64,000 nucleotides of DNA from Bimuria novae-zelandiae CBS 107.79 (lineage: Eukaryota; Ascomycota; Dothideomycetes; Pleosporales; Didymosphaeriaceae): positions 840,894-904,893 of the forward strand of contig ML976666.1 in NCBI GenBank assembly GCA_010015655.1, written 5' to 3'. Shown in pieces: positions 566 through 52,230 of this stretch (position 1 is its first letter; each line of letters starts with the position of its first letter). A program made the position numbers and the translations under genes. The notes under the pieces were generated by a model that saw only the letters and a program-made list of their open reading frames with translations, searched no databases and had not been told where the DNA came from.

Positions 566-617
566 CCCCCCCCCCCCCCCCCCCCCCCCCCGCAACCAAC
601 CAACCAACCAACCAACC
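566..617. repeat. poly-C tract followed by (CAAC)n microsatellite
   Basis: A run of 26 C at 566-591 is followed by about six CAAC units to roughly 617. The tract lies between the partial gene and the Ser/Thr-rich gene on the minus strand. Its length is likely to be unstable and may be inexact in an assembly. The rest of 311-675 shows no gene. Confidence 0.9.
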
Positions 618-2154: not shown

Positions 2155-2434
2155 TCAAACCACAGAATTCGCCTGCACCCTCCGCTTAGGCGCCTGTCGA
2201 ACACCTAGGCAGACCCTGTCTACGTATTAGCCCCTTCCATCCCAAGGATCCAGTCCACTTACCAATCCCCACCATGAGCACAGCCAAGAAAGCTCCAGCG
2301 TAAGGGACGTAGTCAGGCTTGATAGGCGTATCCCGCTTTGCGCAATTAAGCCGGCAGAGGCGCGGATTATAGTGGTCGGGACTGTATCCAGGCGCACACT
2401 TCTTGGTCCACTGTAGACTAGGAGATTGACCCAT
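2155..2434 (-). CDS. small single-pass membrane protein, family member 1 (MG-start, Cys-rich)
   Basis: Two exons, 2434..2263 and 2204..2155, joined over a 58 bp intron (GTAAGT donor at 2262, branch-like GGCTAATAC, TAG acceptor), giving 73 residues. The start at 2434 is preferred over the longer upstream frame because it aligns with two related genes at 12280 and 13637. The order is: an MGxxxS start that fits N-myristoylation; a Cys-rich stretch with CAPGYSPD and two more Cys; one hydrophobic segment (residues about 40-57, VPYAGAFLAVLMVGI); a splice junction in phase 1 directly after it; and a short basic tail. A TATATAAA box lies about 145 bp upstream (2576-2583). The family is not one I recognise; a membrane-anchored small protein is an inference from the motifs. 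The acceptor is not certain, since an in-frame alternative lies 15 bp earlier. Confidence 0.55.
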
Positions 2435-2984
2435 TTTGCTGCTTCCGAGCTTTGAAGAGTTTAGTGTATGAGAGGGTTTCCTCAAGGAAGTCGGGTGATT
2501 GGAAGCTGGAAATATTCGGGTGTCTGGCTCTCCACGTGTTTGGGCTCCTCTTGAAGCGGTAGATGGAGCGGAGGGTTTATATAGGACTGCGAGATCGTGA
2601 GTTAGGCACACGTCGCCGTGATTCAACTTCCATTGCGGATACCATACCTCAGGTTCAGGACGGAGCGATATAGATCAGCATGTGTACCAGGCACCTGCCG
2701 TTGCCCTTTTCAACTTCCAAATGCTAGTAGAGATTGAGCAGGGAGATCTACACTACACTACCCACCCCTCTGTCCCATTACAATAAGCAATACACAGTCC
2801 GGCATTCCGGAAAATAATCAATCCAATGCGACTGAAAAAATGCATTTCATTGTACATGATCTCTGCCAAGAACAGACACTGCTCGCTCATGAAAAGCTTA
2901 CACACACATCCACATCCACCCCTCCTCTCCTCAAACGCTTTGAGTCCCTAATCCCTACATCCTAGAAAATTACAGTCCGCGAAT
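2435..2984. other. intergenic: promoter of the small membrane-protein gene and 3' flank of E2
   Basis: No gene is supported. A TATATAAA box for the minus-strand gene lies at 2576-2583. The stretch 2750-2980 is AT-richer and fits the 3' untranslated region of the E2 gene, which ends at 2985. Confidence 0.5.
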
Positions 2985-4728
2985 CTATAGCATCAGCTCC
3001 AACGGGTTCTCAATCGCCTTCTTGAGCTCACGCATGAACTCGCCACCAACCGCACCGTCAACAACCTTGTGGTCAAAGCTTCCCGTGATCACAATCTGGT
3101 CGTCCCACTCAACGCTCGGTGTGCCGTCTTCTGAGAGCTCACCAGGTACGGCGACCTTCTGCGTTGTGCCGATGGCGACGATGACAGCCTGAGGGGGGTT
3201 GATGACGGCGGTGAAGCGCTCGACGGCGGGGTTCATGCCCATGTTGGAGATGGTGATGGTTCCGCCCTGGTACTCCTCGGGCTTGAGCTTGCCGTCACGC
3301 GCGCGCTTGCCGAGGTCCTTCACTTGGGCGGAAACGGACTGGAGACCAAGACCGGCCACGTTCTTGACGATAGGGGTCATCAGACCAACAGGGGTAGCGA
3401 CGGCGACGGAGACATCGACGACGTTGTGCTGGCGGATGACGACCTGTCCGTTCTCCTCACGCCATGACGAGTTGGCGGCAGGGACCTTGCGTGCGGCGAC
3501 AGCGAGAGCCTTGATGAGGAAGTCGTTGACGGAGAGCTTGTACTCGCCCTTGGAGGAAGCGTTGAGAGCCTCCCGGAGCTTGAGCAGCTTGGAGACAGAG
3601 ATGCTGGAGGCGACGAAGTAGTGGGGGTTCTGCTGCATGCTCTGGGTCAGGCGAGACGCAATGACCTTGCGCATGCTGGTCGCAGGAACGTCCTCGTAAG
3701 TAGGCGCACCAGTGATGGCACCGGCGGCCGCAGGAGCTCCTCCGGTAGACTGAGCCTTCTCAACATCCTCCTTTGTGATCCTGCCGTTGGGGCCGGTACC
3801 CTTGATAGACGATAGCGCAACGCCCTTCTCCAGAGCGAGCTTCTTCGCAGCGGGCGATGCGGAGCCCTGGCGGTCGAGGGAAAGCTCTAGACGCTTGCCG
3901 GAGGAGTCAGATTCGATCGCCTCGGGAGCGGCCTCCTCCTTTGCGGACGGGGCAGTGCCGGATCCTGACTTTGGCGGCTCACTGGCCTCAGAAGCCTCGC
4001 CCTCCTTGGGGGAACCAGCGGCCTTCTTGTCGCCGCCAGCATCTTCGATCGAGAAAGACTCAAAAGCAGAGACATCCTCGCCTTCCTCTACCATGACTGC
4101 GATCGGCTGCTCAAAGTTAGCCACGTCCTATCCCGAGATTTTCTTCTCCCATCTGATCCTCCACCCTTGTTCATCTTCTGCTGTGGCCTGGGACTGGAAA
4201 GGGCACTCACGCTTCCGACGGCAACGTCCTTCTCGCCAGACTCCTTGAGGATCTTCGCGATCACACCCTCCTCCTGGAACTCAAAGTCCATCTGAGCCTT
4301 ATCGGTCTCGATCTCGACCAGCACATCGCCTGGCGCTATCGAATCGCCGACCTTCTTCTGCCAGGTACCGATATTTCCCGCGGTCATGGTAGGGGACAGG
4401 GCAGGCATGCTGACCACTGTGTGCGACGGAAAGGCTGTATATCGCGCAGATTAGCATCGTGTATCCCGGGGGTCTTCGGAAAGACTACGTCGGAGGGCTC
4501 TGCTCACACTTGGAGGCATAGTATCTGGCGAGGGCTGCGAATGCTGGTGTTCGTCGGCTGCGGAGACAGGGTCAGCAAAGCTTCCGCGGCGGTGATTGCA
4601 GGCGCTCAAGCTACGTACGTGGCGAACTCGGAGCATCGCGAGGCGCTCAAGCTTCCTCGCAGGGCAATTGACCCTCTCGAGGTCAATTGGGAGCCCGCGC
4701 GGGATAAAAGTGTCGTAGTTGCTGGCAT
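2985..4728 (-). CDS. LAT1: dihydrolipoamide acetyltransferase, E2 of pyruvate dehydrogenase, mitochondrial
   Basis: Four exons (4728..4619, 4557..4508, 4434..4211, 4106..2985) with introns of 61, 73 and 104 bp give 501 residues. E2 transfers the acetyl group to CoA and forms the core of the mitochondrial pyruvate dehydrogenase complex. The ATG at 4728 opens a typical presequence, rich in Arg/Ser/Ala with almost no acidic residues, that runs into ARYYASKSFPSH. The lipoyl domain (about 60-135) has the lipoylated Lys99 in ETDKAQ. An Ala/Glu/Pro-rich linker follows, then the E1/E3-binding domain (about 210-247), then the catalytic acetyltransferase domain with DHKVVDG near the C-terminus (His474, Asp478). 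All key residues are present. The gene is divergent from SEC7. The domain calls are very secure; the first two exons rest on splice signals and frame continuity. Confidence 0.95.
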
Positions 4729-5298
4729 TGTGACGGGATGCCGATGGGGCCGCTGAAAATTTCCCGGGGCACTCGAGCAGCAACGGCAGGTGGCACCTGA
4801 GCTGAGGGAAGGAGCGAGCGGAGGGTGGAAGGAAGAGAGCCCGCGCTCGTCGGTCGGCGGATCGATGTGCTGGAGATGGGAGAGATTGTTGTGCCCAACA
4901 GAATCAGCGTGTTTAGCTGTTGGCCGTAGCGGCGGCCAAGAGATTCGTTAGTCCCCGAAAAGGGCAGCCACCACCGCCACAGCTGTCGCTGCTGCTTGGA
5001 GCGGAGTCGGAGGTGCGACGCGAGTACTGGCAGGGATGCTTGGTCGGGTTAGGAGGCTGATGCCAAAGACACTTTGTCATTCCACAGTGAATTGCAACAG
5101 GACAGGCAACCATTTGGCCGTTCACCCGGGCCACTATTCCCAGCTGAAACTACTTTGGGCAGGCTCAACCGTGGTACCTGCCACCTCTAGAAAGCGGCTA
5201 CCTGCGCGCAATGGTAGTTTAAGCCGCCCCGCTACTTATTGAGCAGGAGCGACACCAGCTCGGAACACGGCGCATCGCGAGAGTGCACACGATACATA
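4729..5298. promoter_or_regulatory. divergent promoter between E2 (-) and SEC7 (+)
   Basis: The start codons of the E2 gene (4728, leftward) and the SEC7 gene (5299, rightward) are 570 bp apart with no supported gene between them. The interval must hold both 5' untranslated regions and both promoters. I see no clear TATA box and name no specific operator. Confidence 0.6.
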
Positions 5299-8200
5299 AT
5301 GGCCGACACAGAGCCCCCGCCAGGCTCGCCGGAGGTGGAGGACAAGTGGCCGAGCGGACAGCAAGAGCCACCCACAGCAGAAGGGGAGGACCCGAGTGAA
5401 GACGCAGGCTCCCAACCGCCGTCCGAGGCCACAGACGAGAGAGATCCGCAGGCTTCCAGCGCACCGCAGATGCCCGCCGACATGCCCACGCCGACTCCGC
5501 AAACGCCGATAACCCCCAAGCTCAATGTGCCAGAGCCAGAGGAACCAGACTCGCGCCGGACCGCCGAGTTCTTCGAGCAGCGCATGCACCAGGAGAGTCG
5601 CCCACGCACCGATTCGCAGTCTACCGCCGCCACGGCTGCCACAACCGCCACGCGTCCCGGCACGCGAAGCTCGCTCGTCTTTGTTATAAAGGCGCTGGAG
5701 AACATTGCTGCCTCGAAAGACGCAAAAAAGAACAAGAAGCTGGGAGACTCAGTCGCAGGCGCCTTGGCGGCCATCAAGGCAGAGGGTGACCCAGCGCGCA
5801 TCAATCCCGAGATACTCTTCGAACCGCTTCAGCTAGCCTCCGAGGCTCCTTCCGTGCCCGTCTCGATAGCGGCCTTGGACTGTATAGGGAAGCTGATCAG
5901 CTACTCGTACTTTTCCGTGCCTTCCGAGCCGCAGGGCGACAATGCGGCTGCACCCCTGATCGAGAAGGCCATCGACACGATATGCGAATGCTTTCAGGGC
6001 GAAGCCACTCCGCCAGATGTGCAACTCCAGATTGTGAAGTCGCTGCTGGCTGCGATATTGAATGACAAGATTGTCGTCCATGGTGCTGGACTGCTGAAAG
6101 CTGTGCGATTGACGTACAACATTTTCTTGCTCTCCAAGTCGAGCGCAAATCAGCAGGTTGCACAGGGAGCATTGACGCAGATGGTTGGCACCGTCTTTGA
6201 AAGAGTAAAGCTGAGGCTGGCAGCGAAGGAAGCCAAGATCAACCTCTCTCGGGTCTCGTTGAACGGCAAAGACAATTCGGAAGAAAATGTTCACGAAGAG
6301 ATGGGCGTCGAAACCCAACACGCTAATGGCGTCGAAGCCGACATGGAAGAGCAGGAGGAAGAGCATGATGATCCAGAGTCTGCCGAGCCTAGCGACAAGC
6401 CTGTAGACAAGCACACCGGCCCCAAAATCACCCTGCAAAGCTTCGAGCACAACATGAGCTTCAACGACGACCGGATACACGACAACGCGCCAACCCTGGT
6501 CACACGAATAAAAGGCAAACCAGGGTCGAGACAGGTCTCTGGCATCGAAGCTTCGCCGAATCCGCAAGAGGGCGAAGGCTCCGACGAAGAAGAGGAAGAC
6601 GAGATATTCGTCAAAGATGCCTATCTTGTTTTCCGGGCCATGTGTAGATTGAGTACCAAGTCTCTTGCGGTTGATCATGCACTAGACGTGACATCACAGG
6701 GCATGCGCTCCAAACTATTGTCTCTTCACATCATCCATACCATCCTACACAACAACATCGCCGTTTTCGTGTCACCACTCGCGACCATCAGGAGCGGCAG
6801 TGGCGATGAGCCCACTACATTTGTGCAGGCCATTAAGCAGTATCTCTGCTTGAGCTTGAGTCGGAACGGTGCGAGTTCTGTTAGCAAGGTCTTTGAGGTA
6901 GCTTGCGAAATATTTTGGCATATGCTCAAATACCTCCGGGTCATGCTGAAAAAGGAAGTGGAGGTGTTTTTGAAGGAGATCTACCTTACCATCTTGGACA
7001 AGAGGAGTGCACCAGCTTTCCAGAAACAGTACATATTGACCGTCTTCCGAAGATTAGCCGCCGACCCTCGGGCTTTGGTAGAAATGTACCTCAACTACGA
7101 TTGCGATCGGACTGCGCTCGACAACATGTACCAACGCGTTGTTGAACACCTGTCCAAGATATCGAGCACACCGGTCACAGTGTCGCCAATGCAGCAACAA
7201 GCATACCAGGAACAACGCGAGAGACAGTCCAAAACTGCGGATTGGCAAACAAGAGGGACTCTCCCACCCTCATTATCTACAGTGTCAATGAATGCGCCTC
7301 AAGAAAGCGAGCATGCCTATCCGCCGGAATACGCCCTGAAGCAAGAGTCATTAGAAGGCCTGGTGGAGATTCTGCGATCACTGGTGAATTGGTCCGAACA
7401 GTCGATTACCAATACAGCACGGAACTCGAACGTGGATCTGAGGGGATCAGTGGACAACCTCCGAGGCTCTACTGATAATAGAACCATATCTGAGTCTCCG
7501 AATGTTGGTGGAGATTCCGGTACCGTAACACCGATGGTGGAGGACGACTACGGCGAACTCGAGAAGGCGAAACAGAAGAAAACGGCTCTGACGAGGGCTG
7601 TTCGCGAATTCAACTATAAGCCGAAGCGTGGTCTGAAAACTTTGATCAAAGAAGGATTCATTGCTTCAAACGCTCCCGAAGATATTGCTCGCTTTTTCCA
7701 CGAGACAGATCTTCTAGACAAGGGACCGCTGGGCGAGTTTCTTGGAGAAGGTGATCCAGAGAACATTGCAATCATGCATGCCTTCGTCGACCAACTTGAC
7801 TTTAACAAAACGCGCTTTACCGATGCTCTCAGACGCTTCCTGCAATGCTTCCGGTTACCTGGCGAAGCCCAGAAGATCGATCGTTTCATGTTGAAGTTTG
7901 CCGAACGCTACATTACCGGGAATCCGAACGCTTTCGCAAACGCTGATACAGCGTATGTGTTATCTTACTCTGTCATTATGCTGAATGTAGATCAGCACAG
8001 CAAGAAGATGAAGGGGCCCCGGATGACTCCCGAGGACTTCATCAAGAACAACCGCGGCATCAACGATGGCCAAGATCTACCCGAAGATTATCTTCGCGGG
8101 ATCTATGAAGAGATTGCGCACAAGGAGATTGTGCTGGAAACAGAACAAGAAGCAGCAGTGGATAAAGGTCTCATACAGCCTCAGCAAGCCGGAGGTCTGG

Positions 8201-11200
8201 CTGCTGTGGGTCAAGCATTGATCGGCGGTGGTCGAGACCTGCAACGAGAAGTTTACGTCCAAGCGTCAGAAGCGATGGCAAACAAGACCGAGCAGTTATA
8301 CAAGCAACTTCTCCGCGCACAGAGGCGGACTACAAGGACATTACCAGTTTCGAAGTTCATACCCGCCTCTTCCTCTAAACACGTTGGGCCGATGTTTGAA
8401 GTTACTTGGATGCCTTTCCTCACCGCGCTGTCTGGTCAGGCCCAGGACCACAACATTGAGATTGTACGGCTTTGCATCGAAGGCATTAAACTCGCCATTC
8501 GCATCTCTTGCATATTCGACGTCGAGAGTGCGCGACAGGCCTTCGTCGCATTTTTGGCGCGTTTCACCAATCTTTACAATCTGAGCGAGATGAAGGCCAA
8601 GAACATGGAGGCTTTGAAAGTCCTCATCGAAATTGCAAACACAGAGGGTAACTTGTTACGTGAGTCGTGGCGGGAGGTTCTCACCTGCGTTTCTCAGCTT
8701 GACCGATTTCAACTCATATCAGCTGGCATCGATGAGAGGTCGGTGCCGGATGTTTTGAAGACTCAGTCGCAGGGCGGCTCGCAGTCTCGGAAGTCGTTGA
8801 ACGTGCCAAGTAACCGGCGACGACAACTTCCGCATACCAACAGCATGCAATTCCAAGCGGACGTTGCTGAGGAAAGTCGCTCCACAGACATAGTACGAGG
8901 CGTCGACCGAATCTTCACCGGCACCGCCAATCTCTCTGGCGAGGCCATCGTCGATTTCGTCAAGGCATTGACCCAAGTCAGTTGGCAAGAGATTCAGTCG
9001 TCCGGCCAGAGTGAATCTCCTCGCACGTACAGCTTGCAGAAACTCGTCGAGATCAGTGGCTACAACATGACCCGTGTCCGTTTCGAATGGACGAACATTT
9101 GGCAAATTCTAGGCGCGCATTTTAACGAAGTCGGCTGCCACACTAACACGAACGTTGTCTATTTCGCCTTGAACTCCTTGAGACAATTATCGATGAAGTT
9201 TATGGAGATCGAAGAGCTTCCTGGATTCAAGTTCCAGAAGGACTTCCTGAAACCATTCGAGCATATCATGAGCAACGCCAGTGTTGTATCGGTCAAAGAC
9301 ATGGTCTTACGATGCCTCATCCAAATGATCCAGGCGCGAGGCGAGAACATCCGTTCCGGCTGGAAGACGATGTTTGGTGTTTTCACTGTGGCTGCACGCG
9401 AGCCATACGGTAAGTCGAACACTTGGTTGATAATGCAGGACTAACATATATTAACAGAGGGCATTGTGAATCTTGCATTCGAAAACGTATCACAAGTGTA
9501 CAACACTCGCTTTGGTGTAGTCATCTCGCAAGGCGCCTTCGCAGATCTTATCGTCTGTCTCACCGAGTTCTCCAAGAACTACAAGTTCCAAAAGAAGTCA
9601 TTACAGGCTATCGAGCTGCTAAAGTCGTCCGTGCCAAAGATGCTGCGAACACCCGAATGTTCGCTGTCGGCCAGGGCCGGCTTCGTGAAAGAATCGGACA
9701 AAGGTTCATCAATACCAAAGCAACCCAGCCGGCAAACGCAGGAGGAGCAGTTTTGGTTCCCTGTCCTCTTTGCGTTCCACGATGTCTTGATGACGGGTGA
9801 AGATTTGGAGGTACGATCAAGAGCTTTGAACTATCTTTTCGAAACTTTGATCACCTACGGAGGTGACTTCCCGCGAGATTTCTGGGATATGCTCTGGCGC
9901 CAGTTGCTTTATCCTATCTTCATGGTATTGAAGTCGAAATCGGAAATGTCGAAAGTCCTCAACCATGAGGAACTGTCCGTCTGGCTTTCCACGACCATGA
10001 TTCAGGCTCTACGGAACATGGTCAGGTTATTCACCCACTTCTTTGAATCCCTGGAGTATATGCTCGAGCGCTTCCTGGACCTTCTGGCACTCTGCATCTG
10101 CCAAGAAAACGATACCCTTGCTAGAATCGGCAGCAACTGCCTACAGCAACTCATCTTACAGAACGTCCAAAAGTTCACGCCGAAGCACTGGAATCAGATT
10201 GTCAAGGCATTTGTTGACCTTTTCGTACGGACCGAGGCCACAGCTTTGATGTCCGCCGCCACAGCAGGTACACTATCTCAATCGCAAACCTCCAACGGCT
10301 CGTATGGGTATGACCCCGAAAAGACCCCCACAGCGAGCGTTCCTCCGAAAGAGCTTTCGTTGCAGACCCCTAGCGAAGAGCAGTCAATTGGTGACAATGC
10401 GCTTGGCATTAATGGTTTGAACAGCCCGCGGCGTCCATCCGTTGTGACAAATGAGTCATCAAGTACTCTTGGTGCAGAGCAACAGCGAATGCCCTCGCCC
10501 CTACCGAAGCGCCAGACGCAGGAGCTAGAAGACTACCGTCCCGAAAATCAGGACATGCCTCAGCCCCCTGTCGTCGTTACCGCCGCCCGCCGCCGCTTCT
10601 TCAACCAAATCATCACCAAATGCGTTCTCCAACTCCTCATGATTGAAACCGTGCAGGAGCTCTTCACTAACGATGCCGTCTACGACAAGATCCCCTCCGG
10701 CGAGCTCCTCCGCCTTATGGCTGTGCTCAAGAAATCTTACCACTTCGCCAAACGCTTTAACGCGAACCGCGATTTGCGCACCAGATTATTCCGCGAGGGC
10801 TTCATGAAACAGCCACCGAACCTCTTAAAGCAGGAATCAGGCTCCGCCTCAGTCTACGTCAGCATCCTCTTCCGCATGTACCACGACACGTCCACCGACC
10901 GCGCCGCCTCGCGTGCCGACACTGAAGCCGCTCTCATTCCCCTGTGCGAGGACATCATCGCCTCGTACATTGAGCTCGACGAGGAAACCCAGCAGCGCAA
11001 CATCGTCACCTGGCGCCCTGTCGTCGTCAGCGTGCTCGACGGCTACAACCACTTCCCACCAGGCGAGTTTGAAAAGCACGTCGGTGTCTTTGCGCCGCTT
11101 ATTATCGGCTTGCTCGGCACCGAGATGCAGAGCGATATTCAGAGATCGGTGCAGGCGCTCGTGATGAGGGTGTTTGAAAGCAAGGTGGGGATAGAGAAGG

Positions 11201-11289
11201 TGCCGCTTATGACACCGACGCCGCGGAGTCCAGGGGCGAGTTTTCAGGGGAGTCCAAAGTTGGATCGGAAGGCAAGTCGAGGGCGGTGA
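5299..11289 (+). CDS. SEC7: Sec7-family guanine nucleotide exchange factor for Arf GTPases (BIG/Sec7 type)
   Basis: Two exons, 5299..9409 and 9458..11289, separated by a 48 bp intron with a canonical GACTAAC branch, give 1980 residues, usual for fungal Sec7. It loads GTP on Arf1 at the trans-Golgi and drives coat recruitment. The ATG at 5299 is the first in the frame. The order is: a disordered acidic N-terminus (1-110); the DCB region (about 120-330); an acidic spacer; the HUS region with YLNYDCD (about 597); the Sec7 domain (about 770-945); and long HDS repeats to the end. The catalytic glutamate is in FLGEGDPEN. In the SYSVIMLNVDQHS region and the following Met, the side chains are those linked to brefeldin A sensitivity in Sec7/ARNO studies. 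The last 20 residues are Ser/Pro/Arg-rich. Confidence 0.96.
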
Positions 11290-11816
11290 GGCGGGCAGTA
11301 GTGAGTGGTTTTGTTCTTCTTGACTTGAGGCTTGTATGCTTGGAAGGTATCTCTGGCAGTTTTTAGACATTTATTGGTTGGAGCGCTCTGGGATGGGTGA
11401 GTGCTTCGCTTCTTCGCTGGGTAGCATGTTAAGCAAAAGATGTGTGCGGAAATAAAGCTTTAGGCGTGTATGTATACTATTAGTTTTCGTGCACGGCGGT
11501 AGAGTGGTGGCGTAGAGTGTTATTGCATACCTGTTGTCTCACTACTATGATTTCAAAATCGTGTTTTCTGCCCACGGCGCACTACTGGCATCATTAAGGG
11601 TGCTTGCACAGGCATCATAACCTTTTATTATTAAGAGCTGGATTGACCTGTCATTGGTATATAATCGTAAACCAACCCGAATAGATGGTCATCAGGTTCA
11701 TGAATATATGGCTGCTCTAAAATAGCGCGCAAATATTGCCAGTTTGGTCCCATCTCCTCATGTCCGTGTCCGCTGTGTGACCCTTCAACCGCCTGCTAGG
11801 TAGCCTAGCGAGAGGC
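11290..11816. other. intergenic between convergent SEC7 and small membrane-protein genes
   Basis: This is the 3' flank of SEC7 and of the minus-strand gene ending at 11817. An AATAAA-like signal (GAAATAAAG) lies near 11450. No open frame with coding features is seen. Confidence 0.5.
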
Positions 11817-12280
11817 CTACACCAAACCTTCACCCTTCTCGTCCATCTCGATGACCTTGCTAACCGCCTTGTTCTCCCTGCCGCGCTCGCACGCGGCCTT
11901 GGCCGCGCGGACGTCTTGCTCGATCTTGCGAAGCCGCATGTAGCTCAACCCAGCAACTACGCATCGCATTAGCACAGCTCGCTACCTTGCTTTCAACCGA
12001 GTACCCATGATATTCTCAACTTACCGACTAAAACGGCCACGAAGAGCATCATGAGGACGACGTAGTAGACACAGCCGCTCTTGTCGAGGAAGATATCCGG
12101 CGCCATGGTCTCGAGGAGCGCTCGAGGAACGTTCTGCGGCGTCGTCTCCATCGAGCCCTGCGTGATGGGCTGGACGGCGGGCACCTGATGGGGTCCCTTG
12201 TGGCCCTCCCTGATGCAGCACCAGTAGGGCTTGCACTTGTAGTAGTCTTCGGAATTGGGGCACGTCAGTTCGTTGCCCAT
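11817..12280 (-). CDS. small single-pass membrane protein, family member 2 (MG-start, Cys-rich)
   Basis: Exons 12280..12025 and 11956..11817 with a 68 bp intron (GTAAGT, branch GCTAAT, TAG) give 131 residues. The start MGNELTC aligns with family members at 2434 and 13637. It has Gly2 with Thr6 and Cys7, a possible dual acylation site, then five further Cys in the first 25 residues. A polar stretch of about 40 residues follows, then LDKSGCVY and one hydrophobic segment (about 66-85). The phase-1 splice junction falls directly after this segment, as in the other two genes. Exon 2 encodes a charged, probably helical tail of 45 residues (MRLRKIEQDVRAAKAACERG). A TTATATAG box lies about 108 bp upstream (12387-12394). 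Its function is unknown. Confidence 0.65.
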
Positions 12281-13232
12281 GGTGATGGAGTTGGTGGGTT
12301 GTATGAATGCAAGGGCTGGGTCTGTAGCTGTCGGGTGTGGTTGGGTGAGCTTGGAGGGAGAGTGCCGTGTGGCGGGGCGGAGGTGTTTATATAGTTCGGG
12401 GAGAGTGCGCGAGATAAGAGGGCGGTGGGTAAGTGGTAGGGTAGGGTAAGAGCGTTTGCTACGTGAGAGATATTTGGAGACCCGTGCGTTGAATGGCGAA
12501 AGGAGTGGGCTTTGCAAACAGATAAGAGGCGACGTCGCGGATAAGAGGCGAGTGCGAGGGCCGTGATCAAGTTGATTCTGGGTATCTGCGACACAAGTAA
12601 GTGTTCATAGGCAAAATACGACCGCCTGCTTCTAATTCCATTCAGCAACACCGCATGTATCCTTCCCCATCTCGATCTCTCCGCACGAACTTGCAATTGC
12701 TAATATCTTAATCTCTTATATGCGTATGTATATTTTCTCGTTCAGCAATTCGCCATCAAGCTTGTCCCTGATTTGGTTAAACTAGCGGATCCGACGTCGT
12801 CTTGAGGTCCGCGAAGGACATCAGTATGAGCCTTAGAGCTGCTATATTGTTGCATCTACTTTGAAAAGTCTAAACGTACTTTTAATCATGCAGTTCGGTG
12901 GAACTACCTGCGCTATTGCTCTTTGCATTAATGAACGTGACACATAAATAAGACGAGATTAAATCAATCGCAGCACGAGAAAGGTCCTCTATCTCAATAA
13001 TAATCCGATTCATTCATGTCTGCATGTCCCAGTGCCGCTCTCCCATTCATACCAACGAGCGAGCACTCAAAAACAGATGCCCGATACGCTTGCAAAAACT
13101 AACTCGGAGCTAACATGCCACGCCACACTCCGATGAAAGCTCATGGATGAACCTTCAGAAAAACACATGTCCGATGCCGTCTAGGACTTGGAAAGAATCG
13201 TCTGGGAGCCAGCGCCTCGTCACTCACCGCTC
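12281..13232. other. intergenic, no supported gene
   Basis: This holds the TATA box of family member 2 at 12387-12394 and otherwise only short frames without coding character. The part from about 12700 to 13100 is AT-richer. No repeat was recognised. Confidence 0.45.
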
Positions 13233-13637
13233 CTACTTCCGATATCCACGAAGGAGCAGAAGTAGAAGTAGAAGCATTTGCCGCCACGATAAGATCCGCT
13301 TAGCCCAGGGAATCCCCATCCCCTCGCCAGCTAAACCGCATATTCCACCCGCTGGCGACGCTTCAGCACGCGCCGATAGATCTGCCACGCACCTATTCAC
13401 TCGTCAACCCCTATCCTTTGGCATAAACCCTGAAATCTACTTACCTAGAAGAACAAGAAGAATCACGACCGAAAGGATCCCCGCATAGACACAGCCAGGG
13501 CGGTCAAGAGAGATGGGGGAACGCTTCTGTGCGATAGGGTGGCACATGTCTGGTTTACCCACGTTTCCGAGATCGGGGAGGTAGCCTGGTGGACAGATTT
13601 TGCTCATGTCCCGGCCCTTGCTGTGGGAATGACCCAT
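13233..13637 (-). CDS. small single-pass membrane protein, family member 3 (MG-start, Cys-rich)
   Basis: Exon 1 is 13637..13445 and ends in phase 1 at a GTAAGT donor directly after the membrane segment, exactly as in the two related genes. The protein starts MGHSHSK (Gly2, Ser6, Lys7 fit N-myristoylation). It then has CPPGYLPD, PDMC, and LDRPGCVYAG running into a hydrophobic segment (about 48-64). The downstream exon is less certain: three in-frame acceptors are possible (introns of 63, 93 or 114 bp), all reaching the same stop at 13233 through a Leu-rich stretch coded by a short AGAAGT repeat (13256-13276). Length is 96-113 residues depending on the acceptor. A TATATAA box lies about 165 bp upstream (13797-13805). 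Confidence 0.5.
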
Positions 13638-14070
13638 TTCTATTGTTCTTGTGCCGTGGGAAGTGAAGATAAGGTTGGATATATCGTTGTGAGATGGACC
13701 GATGGTAGGTATCCCAGGATGAATGTGAAGACACTTTTGAAGATTGAGGGAGTATTTATGGATTCGGTTGTAGAGTATAGGGTGTGGGTAGTGGGTATTA
13801 TATAGGTATGGGCTGGTGTGTGAGATAGGGCGGGTGGTCGCGTGTTATGGGCACGCGGGAGCGAACTTTTCAACTTTCACGGGGCTCAGGTGCTCCTTCG
13901 TCGTTTTCATCAGCATCAATGACCTTGGCAGATCGTTTACTGAGGCTGTTTAGTAGAGGTTGAGTAGGAAGATTTCTGTGAATGTGATACACACGGGTCA
14001 ACCCCTTGTCAAACGAGTTAGCGAACCAGCCTTATTACCATAGGTACCATTCAGTCGGACGCCACCAGAC
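13638..14070. other. intergenic, promoter side of family member 3
   Basis: It contains the TATA box at 13797-13805. No gene is supported. Confidence 0.4.
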
Positions 14071-24098: not shown

Positions 24099-25944
24099 CT
24101 AACTACACGCCGCCGCGCCATCGCACCGACTCGGCACATCTCCATACCCCGCCCACGCCTGTCCTGCGCCCAGGCAGTTCGTAGGACGTATCTGCTCGGA
24201 CGCAGTGATGGTCGCGGTGCACTTGAATTTGTAGCCGGCGTTTGTTGGGATAGTTGCTGCCGGAGGAGGAGGAACAACGGAGGTTGAAGTCGCGACCGGA
24301 GTCTCTGGGACAAAAGGGGTGGGGATGAGAGACGGCGATGATGAGGGAGTGACAGCTGGAGATTCAATGGCGGAAGAAGTAGGCGTGGGAGTGACCGCTG
24401 GGGTTTCCGCGACCGAAGACGTGACGATGCTGACGGGCGCCGAGGTTGCGGCCTCGGTGGGCACATCCAGAACCGCAGAGGTCGCGTTCGCCGCAGCAGT
24501 AGCGGAGGAAGACGGGACAATTACTTCTGTAGCCTGCGAAGCGTCAGCCGTCGCACTTGGAGTCGACACCGGAGCTGGAGGGGGCACTGACGCCGCGTCG
24601 CCCTTCGCCACGCCCACGAAGGCATTCAGATTCACAGGGCTACAATTCTCCGTAATCTCGAGCGTGCCCGTTGCGCCGAACACATCCGCGCCATCGCGGG
24701 CCAGCGTGAACGTCTGCTTGCCCGTGCCCATGGCGACCTGGAACGCGCTGGCACCTGCGGGCGCCTCGAAGCTCTGCGTGTTTCCACCCGAGGTGACTGT
24801 CACGGTGCCGGCGGACTGGAGCAGGGCAACCACGAAGACGGCGTCCTGCAGCGTGTCGATGCCGTCGAAGGCGCCGCACGCGGCCTTGGGGCTAGGCCGG
24901 TACCAGTACACGAGTTTGTCCTGGGCGACGGAGATTTCCTTTGCGCCGGCCTTGTACGCGGTGATGTAGGGCTCTGCCATTTCGAGCCAGCCGCCGTGCG
25001 GCATACCATTTGCCCACGCGCTGGAGCCGTCGTCGGTGTGCTTGCTCGTCTCGGCGTCAGGGCCGATGTAGTGGCTCTCGCCGTAGTCGTTCCACGTGAT
25101 GATCTCAATCATCTGGGGTGCGAGGGCGAGGATCTCGTTCCAGCGGCGGAACCAAAGGAGGTCGCCGGGGAAATTCCACGCTTTGCTCGCGAAGTTGGTG
25201 AAGAACCAGGGGGAAACAGGGGCCATGTAAGTCTTTCCACCGAGCCATTCTGTGTATTTGGCGTCGAAGTCGGAGGTGGTGACGTTGGATTCGGGGGTGG
25301 GAGCGCGGTTTGCGCCGTTGCTGTCCCAGCCGATCCAGTTGAAGGAGCCGTCGATGTCGCCGACGGAAGTGGCATCCCTGATGCCCGTGGGGGAGAGGTT
25401 AGGCACGAGGTAAAGATCCGTTCCAGCAGCAGCACGGATGGTGTTCGCGTTGAAGAGCTTGCTTGGATCGTTGTCGCCGTTGAAGCTCGAAACAAAGCAC
25501 TTTCCGTCCACTTGGAGTTGGCCCGGCTTTGCACAGTACTCCTTGAGCTTCGCGCCGACGAGCTCGTTCTCGCCCGTCTCGAAGTAGTTATAGTCGAACG
25601 AAATGAAAACCTTCATGTCGTTGTTGGCAGCACTTTCATATGCGTAGTTGAGCTGGGCGTCGGTATAGTCGTCCTTGGCGATGTTGAGCGCAAAGGCGTC
25701 GATACCGGCGGCTTTCGCCCTCTTCATGTCATCGTCATAATCGGCAGCGCTTTCGCGGTTTGCCATAATGCCAATCTACACAGCTTAGCTCCCGTCGCAT
25801 CCAAAGCATTTGTTCTCCTACCATGAAGTGCGCAGCAACAATCTTCCCCGCATCCTGTCTCTTGATAGACGAGGTCTTGAACGGTGCAGCGTTCGCCGCA
25901 GCGGCAAGGAGCCCGAGAGCCACCGAGGTAGTCGTAGCGCGCAT
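24099..25944 (-). CDS. secreted alpha-1,3-glucanase (GH71, mutanase type)
   Basis: Two exons, 25944..25822 and 25775..24099, with a 46 bp intron, give 599 residues. The enzyme would hydrolyse alpha-1,3-glucan of fungal cell walls. Residues 1-19 form a signal peptide (RATTTSVALGLLAAAANA), followed by a short propeptide with a KR site. The GH71 domain (about 30-435) begins with AAHFM|IGIMANR and contains DAFALNIAKDD, VFISFDYN, WIGWDSNG, VSPWFFTNF and TWNDYGES, all typical. A long Ser/Thr/Pro/Val linker (about 436-550) looks heavily O-glycosylated, and a 45-residue Cys-containing C-terminus ends in AACS. Length and domain order are normal for the family. Confidence 0.93.
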
Positions 25945-45645: not shown

Positions 45646-46188
45646 TCACAGCTTCGCCTTCGGTGCAAAGCTCTTGACAACCGCCTCAACCCCCGCCGTC
45701 GCAACATCCTCATCTTGTGCCGGCGTCCCCGTACTGCAACCCACGGCGCCGACTACGACGCCGTCTTTCACAATCGGCACACCACCTGTACTCGTTAACT
45801 CAAGCCCCAAACAAAAGCACCCAAGCCTCCTCCCTCTTCGCCCTTCCTCACTGCGTTCGAAGGGAGAGGTAGTATACTCACCGCCAATAGTACTAAACCT
45901 CCCCCCATTCGTCCAATTAATCCCCCACACCGCACTCCCCGGCACCACCTTGTCTTTGTAACTACTCGTAGGCACCCTATGCCCCGCCGCCGTAAACGCC
46001 TTATTCACCGCTATATCCACACTCGTCAACTTCGCGCCGTCCATTCTCGCAAAAGCCAGGAGGTGCAGCGATGCATCCACAACCGCGACGTTCATAGGTA
46101 CGCTGATGGCTTGGGCGCGCTGGATGGAGGCGGACAGGGCGGTTTGGGCGCCGGCAAGGGTGAGGATAGGGGGGTTGTGCGTTGCCAT
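45646..46188 (-). CDS. GlcG/HbpS-like (DUF336) small protein
   Basis: Two exons, 46188..45882 and 45785..45646, with a 96 bp intron (GTGAGT...ACAG) give 148 residues, the usual size. The intron length is a multiple of three and it has no stop, so an unspliced frame also stays open, adding 32 residues in the middle of the domain. Splicing restores the conserved FSTIGGGVPIV. Other family features are NVAVVDASLHLLAF, the DIAVNKAFTAAG helix, and VVGAVGCSTGTPAQDEDVA at the C-terminus. Bacterial relatives bind haem or are linked to glycolate use. The fungal role is not established. No targeting signal is visible. Confidence 0.85.
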   Translation of the reverse strand: MATHNPPILTLAGAQTALSASIQRAQAISVPMNVAVVDASLHLLAFARMDGAKLTSVDIAVNKAFTAAGHRVPTSSYKDKVVPGSAVWGINWTNGGRFSTIGGEYTTSPFERSEEGRRGRRLGCFCLGLELTSTGGVPIVKDGVVVGAVGCSTGTPAQDEDVATAGVEAVVKSFAPKAKL

Positions 46189-48871: not shown

Positions 48872-51339
48872 CTACGCGAGGTAGCCCAGCTCGTCACCCT
48901 CTAAGCGCTCTAGGTACTCCTTCTCGAGGAGGATGTCGATGCACTTCTTGATGTCGGGCACGCGGGGCATGAAACGGTTCTTGATCTGCTGGATCGTCTC
49001 CGAGACGAGCTGCTGGTGCTTCATCTTCTTGCGGGACTTCATGATACGCACAATGGCAGACTGTGAAATGTTAGCGATATTGTTGCAAGATAATGTTAGT
49101 GCTGTACATACCTGCATGAGCAGCTTCCGGTCCTCCTCGATCGTCTTGTGCGTATCCTCGGCCTCCTGCTTCTGCTCGCCCTTGATGGTGATGTTGAAGT
49201 TCATCTTGACCTTCTTCGTCTTGAAGCCAAGGTTCAACTTATACGTAGTACCCGACTCGGGCTTGGCACCTTCTGGCTCAGCGGTGAGGACCTTGGCCTT
49301 GATGAAGACACCGATGCTAGGGTCTAATGTCTGCTTGTCAAGCTTGGTGATTTCGGCAATCTCGTCATAGGTGACGGAATCCTGGTCGTTGAAGGGTAGC
49401 AAAATGGCCATCTGATAAGTTGATACTTGGTAAGTGGGAGAGACCTTCTGGCCAGCAACCTTGCAGTAGTTTGCCTTCAGCTCACCCTTGGACAAATGCC
49501 ACAGCCATGAGAGCTTTCGGCCTTGGTGCTTATTGTTGTAAAATCGGGTGAAACGCTCGTACGTCTGCACGATGAGTTGGGGAGGCGTAAAGGTCGTGTT
49601 TGGCGGGCTCAGGGGCCAGAAACCGGTACCGAGAATGTTGTAGCTGGCGTCGACGAAGGTCTTACGCTCCGTGGGGTCGAAAGTGGCGTCTAACCAATCT
49701 GAATAGTTGCTGTTCAGATCCTTTGAAATTTGCATGTCCTGGAACATGCGCTGCAGCTTGTTGGTGTACTCAAAACCGCAAGCCTCCTTCAGCTTCGAAA
49801 TCATGGTAGTCTCAGCGTCGTCCGAGGCTGAAGTGCTCTGGACCAAACGCCGGGCCAGCATGCGCGAGTAGAACTTCTGGAATACATCCTTGTCTTCAAT
49901 GTACTTGAAAACCGTCATCACCTGGGTCAGCAGCGCCTCCATGTTGTCCTCTTCCGTCATCTTGGCGCTGGACTTCTTCAGTAGGGTATCCGTGTACTTG
50001 GCAAGCAACTCGGGCGACTTGTTGGAGCCCGACTTGCAGATCTTGTTGCGGTTGACGAATTCGCGGCAGGCGTTGTCCAGGGAACGCACAAACTCCGACT
50101 CGCCACCAAAAGAGCGGTTCACAAGATCCTGGTACTGGGTGTGGACCTCCAACAGCGCATCAACGTAGACCTTGGGCTCGATGTTGTCACCCTCCACAGC
50201 GACCTTTTCTACCGCCGAGAGACCAGCCTTCCTAACGTGCGTCTCAAAGCGGGTGCGCAGCGGGTCCAGGCCCTCTGGGATGCGGGCAAGCAAGTTGTAC
50301 ATGCGGCCCAGATCTTCCTGCTTGTCGTGGTCAAGCAGCAGCTGGAACTCCTCTCGCAGGGCCGACGAGTGCTTCTCGATGAGTGACTTCTCGCATGCGC
50401 GCATGAGCGGTGACATGATCTCGGCAAGCAAGTACAGGGATACGCGGTTCTTCTCTTCCTCCAAGCGGTGCTCAGCCTTCTTCATGTATTCCACCACGCT
50501 GTTCTCGGCCAAAAACTGCTTCGATTCGTTGTCATAGTACACTTCGGTGGCGTCCAGGAAGGGCTTTTCGAAATGCTGCTTATATACGTCGAGCGTAGAC
50601 TTGGAGCTGTCCTGCTCGTCCAGACCGAGAGACACGAAGGAGTCGACGACGCGCTTGACCTGCATCTGGTCAATGGTCTCGCCGTTGCGCTGCTTCTCCA
50701 CCAGCTTCAGGACCGAGCGCATAACCTGCTCCTGTGTGCCTGCGAACATGTCCTCTTTCCACCGCACCAGGTGCAGAGTGTAGATATCGTAGATGTTCTT
50801 CTTGCCCTCATCCATCTCACGCTTGACCCAATGCCGGTTCAGGTAGCGGAACAGATGGTTGTTGTACTGGGCGGCGGTGGTGTAGCGCCCCCACTCCTTG
50901 ATGTAGAAGGAGAGGAGGGCCTCATCGGTGTGCTCGGTGGAGGCCTTTTGCACAGCGGCGAGATGCGTCTTCAGGTAGTCGATCAGATGCGTGTATAGCT
51001 CTTCACCGAGGAGATGGGCTCCGCCGCGGTTGGTGGACGCTGTAAACGAGGTACCGGCGACGGCCTTTTGTGCGGTACAGAAGTTGTGGATGGCTGTGTA
51101 GAGGCCCATGTAGGTCTTCATATCCATGCCATCTCGCAGGCTGTGCATGATTTTATTCACACCGGCTTCGAGGTAGGTCCATCTGCGATGTGTTAGCAAG
51201 TATTCGGCGTAAATCGATGTATACAAGGGTCGGCAAGCTACCAAAACAGGACGGCGAGGAACGGCAAATAAGACAAAGCAATCACTTACGTTCCCGCAAT
51301 GTCCTCCTTCTTGGGGACGGGTGGCATAGCGGAGGCCAT
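48872..51339 (-). CDS. CDC53: cullin-1, scaffold of SCF ubiquitin ligase
   Basis: Three exons, 51339..51290, 51182..49112 and 49060..48872, with introns of 107 and 51 bp, give 769 residues. Cullin-1 holds Skp1/F-box proteins at its N-terminus and the RING protein Rbx1 at its C-terminal domain. The start [14 protein letters not shown] joins the conserved [14 protein letters not shown] across intron 1. Cullin repeats occupy about 20-410, the cullin homology domain about 420-640, and the winged-helix end carries the neddylation motif [10 protein letters not shown] with Lys715. The protein ends in [14 protein letters not shown], the usual cullin C-terminus. The second intron is 51 bp without a stop in frame and lies 7 codons before the neddylation Lys, so retention would insert 17 residues. 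Confidence 0.95.
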
Positions 51340-52230
51340 GTCGGGCTGCGGCGTCGCGTGCACTGCGACACTTTTCGAGGGCGACTTCTTGCGCTTGAAG
51401 AGCGGTATCTTCGGGGAAGAAGTTCGCGGCGGACGGCTTCAAAGAGTGTGGGGTGTTGCGACCTGGGTGCTGCGGAAGCTGCGCGGTGTTGAGTTGGAGG
51501 GGAGAGAAGCGGCGCCGCGGGCGGTTTTGTAGGGTCGGCGAAGGCGGCGAAGGCGGCGATTAACTGGTACTCCCGCACGGGTCACGGCCGCTGAATTCAC
51601 GCCGAGTTTGTTGCTCCGACAAAGAGAGGGAGAGAAGGCAGGTGAAGGCGGCTCTCCAGGCGGCGGTGGCCTTTTGTGATTCACGGCGGAGCCAGGCTAC
51701 AGCACGCTGGCCGCGAAGCTCGAACCCTCTTGGCGCGTTGCAGCCTTACTTACTTAATTACCGTCAGCCACTACAAAGGTTCGACCGCGGCAGAGAAACA
51801 CACTTTTCTGCTCGACCCACGGTTTTCAACCTGCAAACCCGAAGTGCCCATATGGTTCAACCAGATGAAATGTGCAGTCTCCCGACGTTCACTTCTTCCA
51901 CTTCTTCCGCCGCTTCCCTGCAGCACGCCATTCGCGAAGCCTTGAAGTTACGCACACGTCACAAAAGATGACCGCTCACTTTCTCGCACATGTGCGCGGG
52001 TGATGCCTCTTCACCCGGAATCATCTAGACCTCGCACGCGGATGCTGCTACGGAGGCTCCACAAATGCGTACAGATCCTACTTGACAACTATTTGCTCGG
52101 TCACGCCTGCCATGTAGCTATGACGTTGCTGTACCTGGACCCTTGATATCACTTCTACATCCACAGCGCAGTATTACTACACACAACCGCCAGTCTCACC
52201 TCCCTTGTCCTTCCAACATCTACACACAAA
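51340..52230. promoter_or_regulatory. divergent intergenic region between cullin-1 (-) and the cupin gene (+)
   Basis: The two genes diverge and their start codons are 891 bp apart. Overlapping frames occur on both strands, but none has consistent coding character. No clear TATA box is seen. Confidence 0.5.

What the first reader, a model, noticed from the sequence alone, without database searches (positions are those of the whole stretch)
2155..13637. A family of three small MG-start, Cys-rich membrane proteins with one conserved splice junction
Genes at 2155-2434, 11817-12280 and 13233-13637 (all minus strand) share an MGxxx(S/T) start, a Cys-rich head, an LD(K/R)xGCVY or related lead-in, one hydrophobic segment, and a phase-1 GTAAGT junction directly after it. 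Two share C(A/P)PGY(S/L)PD. All have a CTATATAA box 105-165 bp upstream. The tails after the junction are unrelated in sequence. A conserved membrane anchor with exchangeable tails is unusual and I know no described family like it.
Basis: partly seen in the sequence, partly recalled or inferred. Interest (0 to 1): 0.8.

Follow-up and report, generated by a model that had tools for sequence, protein, structure and literature searches.

The report
Three related small fungal membrane proteins
A fungus carries three neighbouring small genes, apparently old duplicates of one gene, for short membrane proteins of unknown role; they share an intron and a promoter type, but the idea of a fixed anchor with swappable tails is not supported.

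Summary
The three genes look real, and C links them as a family. C matches A (BLASTP E 3e-06) and B (1e-06), best in the predicted frame of 36 frame pairs; A and B do not match each other. All three start MG, have one hydrophobic segment, a phase-1 GTAAGT donor at its end and CTATATAA upstream. A 264 kb scan for MG start, hydrophobic end and donor returned these three and one poor place. 'Unrelated exchangeable tails' is not supported: with a 52-nt intron in C (gene end 13331, not 13233) the C tail continues the ungapped alignment with B, 7 of 19 identical, reached by 64 of 20000 shuffles, although tails compared alone with free register are not significant. No relative was found in Pfam, NCBIfam, PDB sequences or the large protein set, where a cullin control found Pleosporales proteins. 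Best reading: a fast-diverging, locally duplicated family of single-pass membrane proteins of 73-131 aa. Topology is open: flanking charge favours an outward Cys-rich head, the MG start a myristoylated cytosolic one.

The parts
2155..2434 (-). Gene A, predicted 73 aa: exon 1 2263-2434, intron 2205-2262 (58 nt), exon 2 2155-2204. A 43-nt intron (acceptor at 2220) keeps the same end with 5 extra residues.
   Evidence: similarity to C
2577..2584 (-). CTATATAA box upstream of gene A, at the start of a 21-bp stretch shared with the B promoter
11817..12280 (-). Gene B, predicted 131 aa: exon 1 12025-12280, intron 11957-12024 (68 nt, CTAAT branch-like site), exon 2 11817-11956
   Evidence: similarity to C
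12387..12394 (-). CTATATAA box upstream of gene B
13331..13637 (-). Gene C, predicted 84 aa: exon 1 13445-13637, intron 13393-13444 (52 nt), exon 2 13331-13392
13798..13805 (-). CTATATAA box upstream of gene C

Best explanation
Three paralogous genes, born by local duplication and now strongly diverged, encode single-pass membrane proteins of 73 (A), 131 (B) and 84 aa (C). Shown by computation: protein-level, frame-specific similarity of A with C and of B with C; the same donor position and phase; one hydrophobic helix; a TATA-type box upstream; a tail with a basic cluster next to the helix. Inferred: the intron is ancestral and the tails have drifted rather than been exchanged. Inferred, weaker: the protein inserts as a reverse signal anchor (type III), with the Cys-rich head in the lumen or outside the cell and the basic tail in the cytosol, is made when a TATA-driven, condition-dependent promoter is on, and acts as a small surface or endomembrane protein, alone or as a modulator of a larger membrane complex. 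I hold the family part at about 0.8 and the outward head at about 0.5; the score is for the whole.
For: BLASTP A-C 3e-06 and B-C 1e-06. Shuffles that keep head, helix and tail composition apart: A-C whole protein 1 of 2000, A-C head 0 of 2000, B-C whole protein 0 of 2000, B-C first exon 3 of 2000. Best of 36 frame pairs is the predicted one for A-C (60, next 30) and B-C (51, next 32), while blastn on the genes gives nothing better than E 0.057. Third codon positions differ more (68% of 56 codons C-A; 65% of 23 codons C-B) than first and second (38% and 41%). Phase-1 GTAAGT donor in 3 of 3. B and C tails align in register. Architecture scan: 4 places in 264 kb. In a model of the C first exon a helix covers 46-63, with block pLDDT 87-88 from residue 51. 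Net charge of up to 15 residues after the helix, cut by hand, exceeds that before it in 3 of 3: A +4/+1, B +3/-1, C +5/+2.
Against: No transcript evidence. A-B show no direct similarity (777 of 2000 shuffles reach the score; no coding-frame signal). In a six-frame search of 264 kb the cross-matches are weak: A to C 0.01, C to A 0.019, and B to C 0.13, C to B 0.15 against best other rows of 0.083 (query A), 0.19 (B) and 0.17 (C), so B-C does not stand clear of noise there. Tails compared alone with free register: A-C 318 of 2000, B-C 256 of 2000; A-C in register 2649 of 20000. The MG start with S/T at position 6 argues for a cytosolic head. The codon-position contrast was measured on a protein-guided alignment, which favours it.
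Confidence: 0.5

Rival explanations
1. Same family, opposite topology: Gly2 is N-myristoylated and head cysteines (for example the GCVY cysteine beside the helix in B and C) are palmitoylated, so the head is cytosolic and held twice, by lipid and helix, with the tail on the other side.
For: MG with S/T at position 6 in 3 of 3 although much of the head has diverged. The PROSITE myristoylation pattern, as I recall it, is met by A and B. N-myristoylated transmembrane proteins exist: mouse Stbd1 (PMC5358331, abstract start in listing); juxtamembrane S-palmitoylation is described (PMC11923826, abstract start in listing).
Against: C fails the recalled pattern (His after Gly; 2 of 3 pass). Net charge after the helix is higher than before it in 3 of 3.
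Confidence: 0.3
2. Modular system: a conserved anchor exon joined to exchangeable tail exons.
For: One junction after the hydrophobic segment in 3 of 3; A and C tails not significantly alike; tails alone with free register not significantly alike for A-C or B-C.
Against: B and C tails align through the junction in the register fixed by the first exons (64 of 20000). The B tail has one match in the genome besides itself, E 0.51, in a stretch where I saw no fitting first exon.
Confidence: 0.06
3. Chance: unrelated short open frames, or only A and C related, grouped by a reader who searched a large window.
For: B-C matches of E 0.13-0.15 in the 264 kb search lie close to noise rows of 0.17-0.19; A-B unrelated by every test; no homologues in public proteins.
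Against: Frame-specific similarity, same phase and position of the donor, CTATATAA upstream of all three, tail register of B and C, and only one other place with the architecture in 264 kb.
Confidence: 0.14

Closest known systems
TEMP, type III endosome membrane protein (mouse; PMC3901140, abstract and section list seen)
   Same: Short protein (111 aa), one helix, experimentally N-out/C-in, function not inferable from sequence: a precedent for the topology proposed here.
   Different: Animal protein; no sequence relation was tested; the abstract mentions no Cys-rich MG head.
N-myristoylated transmembrane proteins such as mouse Stbd1 (PMC5358331, abstract start in search listing)
   Same: Title and abstract start: N-myristoylated and transmembrane.
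   Different: A starch-binding protein; no sequence relation was tested; acylation of A, B, C is not shown.
PLAC8/PCR small membrane proteins (PMC12467093, abstract start in search listing)
   Same: Small membrane proteins; Cys-richness of PLAC8 is recalled.
   Different: Two helices by that abstract; A, B and C have one helix and no PLAC8 match in Pfam.

Membership tests
One paralogous family (A, B, C) | Pairwise similarity beyond composition | tested here: inconclusive
   Met for A-C (1 of 2000 shuffles) and B-C (0 of 2000); not met for A-B (777 of 2000)
One paralogous family (A, B, C) | Same donor position and phase | tested here: met
   Phase-1 GTAAGT at the end of the hydrophobic segment in 3 of 3; use of the donors in transcripts not testable here
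One paralogous family (A, B, C) | Similarity only in the coding frame | tested here: inconclusive
   Predicted frame best of 36 pairs for A-C and B-C; not for A-B
N-myristoyltransferase substrates | MG start and PROSITE-type pattern (recalled) | tested here: inconclusive
   MG in 3 of 3; pattern in 2 of 3, C fails
N-myristoyltransferase substrates | Acylation of Gly2 in the cell | not testable with these tools
   Needs labelling
Type III (reverse signal-anchor) membrane proteins | One helix, more positive charge after it than before it | tested here: met
   Charge after/before: A +4/+1, B +3/-1, C +5/+2; helix limits set by hand
Type III (reverse signal-anchor) membrane proteins | No cleaved N-terminal signal peptide | not tested
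   N-termini look non-hydrophobic by reading; no signal-peptide predictor was run
Type III (reverse signal-anchor) membrane proteins | N-terminus outside the cytosol | not testable with these tools
   Needs a topology reporter
Anchor with exchangeable tails | Tails unrelated across the junction | tested here: inconclusive
   B-C related in the first-exon register (64 of 20000; 74 of 20000), not with free register (256 of 2000); A-C not significant
Anchor with exchangeable tails | Tail found joined to other genes | tested here: not met
   Only the B tail was searched: itself and one rejected match at E 0.51
Any Pfam family (CYSTM, PLAC8 and others) | Profile match above the curated cut-off | tested here: not met
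   0 of 3 proteins; one sub-threshold SURF1 match for C, E 0.25

The most novel reading that the evidence does not exclude
An undescribed, Pleosporales-restricted family of doubly anchored proteins: a myristoylated, palmitoylated Cys-rich cytosolic head fixed by both lipid and helix, expanding by local duplication next to housekeeping genes.
Probability: 0.25. Interest if true: 0.45.

Novelty: new member of a known kind. Interest (0 to 1): 0.27.

Why it matters
Short, lineage-restricted fungal genes with an intron are easily missed or mis-modelled (established knowledge, not tested here). A trio in which intron, promoter box and helix seem to outlast the sequence gives a handle (junction plus helix plus TATA box) for finding such genes. 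It does not, on present evidence, show a new modular principle.

Tried and rejected
Own-genome protein searches with each first exon at E up to 10 found only the query itself; the tool's first look scores only its best candidates (one each), so this does not rule out distant copies; indeed it missed the A-C similarity. Codon pattern for D(K/R-like)xGCVY: 5 matches in the genome, 2 are B and C. Of the other three, C7 and C120 are unconvincing, and C98:150987 (LDRSGCVYVYLLPVVALILLIRGLRYL) has a fitting helix, but I saw no in-frame MG start, TATA box or donor; its 41 aa returned itself and gene C at E 0.206. I left it out of the family. A profile hit at C11:950281 (E 0.012) shows no clear transmembrane segment by eye. 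The C13 match of the B tail was rejected. The viral-contig scan matched 25 stretches, none a relative. PDB profile hit to the FGFR3 helix, E 0.29, and NCBIfam MIGRI for C, E 0.019 and below its cut-off, I take as helix-plus-basic chance matches. A 5.8S rRNA search of the genome, meant for placing the organism, gave no match. The structure model is of the C first exon only, three sequences deep, mean pLDDT 62.7; no fold search was made. Literature: searches listed 1, 2, 3, 7, 0 and 6 papers; by title and abstract start none describes such a fungal family. One abstract was opened; only open-access papers are held.

The thresholds were set after seeing the three genes. Acceptors were listed only for introns of 40-120 nt. 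In one search a B-C comparison with the tail strings one residue out of register (B string includes the junction residue) gave 5828 of 20000, no similarity. Membership beyond 100 kb on either side of the window was tested only by the word-based and pattern searches.

Full report
What is there. The window lies on contig C11 (840894-904893) of a 77.4 Mb assembly in 191 contigs. The cullin frame at 48872-51442 is closest to an unnamed protein cluster (91%) and, among named proteins, to Massarina eburnea (86%), Byssothecium circinans and Lentithecium fluviatile (85% each), so the fungus belongs in or near the Massarineae, Pleosporales (that suborder is recalled, not looked up).

Gene models. On the minus strand A starts at 2434, B at 12280 and C at 13637. 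Each first exon runs open to a GTAAGT donor (2262, 12024, 13444), all in phase 1. Acceptors were listed for introns of 40-120 nt. B has two: 43 nt without a branch-like site, giving another frame, and 68 nt with CTAAT, ending at 11817, which I take. Unspliced, C would stop at residue 66, just after the hydrophobic segment.

Are they related? BLASTP gives 3e-06 for A-C and 1e-06 for B-C. Against shuffles that keep head, helix and tail composition separately, A-C and B-C stand out (whole proteins 1 of 2000 and 0 of 2000) and A-B does not (777 of 2000). Of 36 frame combinations the predicted one is clearly best for A-C and B-C. DNA similarity inside the genes is close to nil (best E 0.057), but A and B share a 21-bp stretch starting at the TATA box (90%, E 8.6e-04). 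In a six-frame search of 264 kb around the window the cross-matches rank first among non-self matches but are weak: A to C 0.01, C to A 0.019, B to C 0.13, C to B 0.15; the best other rows lie at 0.083 (query A), 0.19 (B) and 0.17 (C). A scan by architecture (ATGGG, 40-130 codons, hydrophobic end, donor) over the same 264 kb gave four places: A, B, C and one with two cysteines and no TATA box; its thresholds were chosen with the three genes in view. Taken together I hold the family to be real with C as the link.

The tails. With the 52-nt intron of C, BLASTP aligns B and C without gaps over 42 residues from 23 before the junction residue to 18 after it. Over the 19 tail residues after the junction residue 7 are identical, and 64 of 20000 or 74 of 20000 shuffles score as well; the other three C acceptors give nothing of the kind. 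Against this, a local comparison of tails alone, with the register left free, is not significant (B-C 256 of 2000, A-C 318 of 2000), and A-C in register is not either (3 of 15 identical, 2649 of 20000). In all three a basic cluster follows the helix (K+R: A 4 of 14, B 5 of 15, C 6 of 14 residues; helix limits set by hand). This is what drift of a tail in old duplicates looks like; exchange is not needed.

How it might work. In a three-sequence model of the C first exon a helix covers 46-63 and the head is poorly predicted. Charge around the helix favours head outside, tail inside in 3 of 3; small N-out proteins of this size exist, such as TEMP, 111 aa (PMC3901140, abstract). Against this stands MGxxx(S/T), present in all three; the recalled PROSITE pattern is met by A and B and failed by C. 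N-myristoylated transmembrane proteins exist (Stbd1, PMC5358331, listing). A role as a small surface or endomembrane protein, and regulated expression from the TATA box, are inference only.

Relatives. None in Pfam, NCBIfam above cut-off, PDB sequences (one helix match at E 0.29), viral contigs or the large protein set (B alone: 10 candidates, none at E up to 1; alignment: 197 candidates, none). In the genome the CxPGYxPD codon pattern gave two matches, A and C. Short fungal genes with an intron are often absent from protein sets (general knowledge), so absence is weak evidence of restriction.

Odds after checking. With them in, I lowered the family part from 0.85 to 0.8 and the best explanation from 0.6 to 0.5, set the myristoylated rival at 0.3 (0.35 before, so that the four readings add up), raised exchangeable tails from 0.04 to 0.06 and chance from 0.12 to 0.14.

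Verdict. Probably a real but ordinary kind of thing: a small, orphan, locally duplicated membrane protein family with a shared intron. The part that would have been unusual, exchangeable tails, is not supported.

Noticed in passing
window 45646-46188 (-): An open 180-aa frame with an HbpS-like domain (PF03928, E 1.2e-32) inside the AT-rich stretch.
   Followed up: partly
window 26001-48000: GC falls from about 0.5-0.6 to 0.28-0.41 for some 22 kb, like the AT-rich blocks left by repeat-induced point mutation in Pezizomycotina (recalled, not tested).
   Followed up: no
L010 (C98:149487-152507), positions 1486-1608: LDRSGCVY followed by a hydrophobic run and basic residues, resembling B and C (gene C at E 0.206), but I saw no start, TATA box or donor.
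   Followed up: partly
window 24099-25766 (-): Glycosyl hydrolase family 71 frame (E 1.3e-118) just before the AT-rich block.
   Followed up: no
window 566-591: A run of 26 G on the minus strand next to GGTT repeats, close to the 676-1419 open frame.
   Followed up: no
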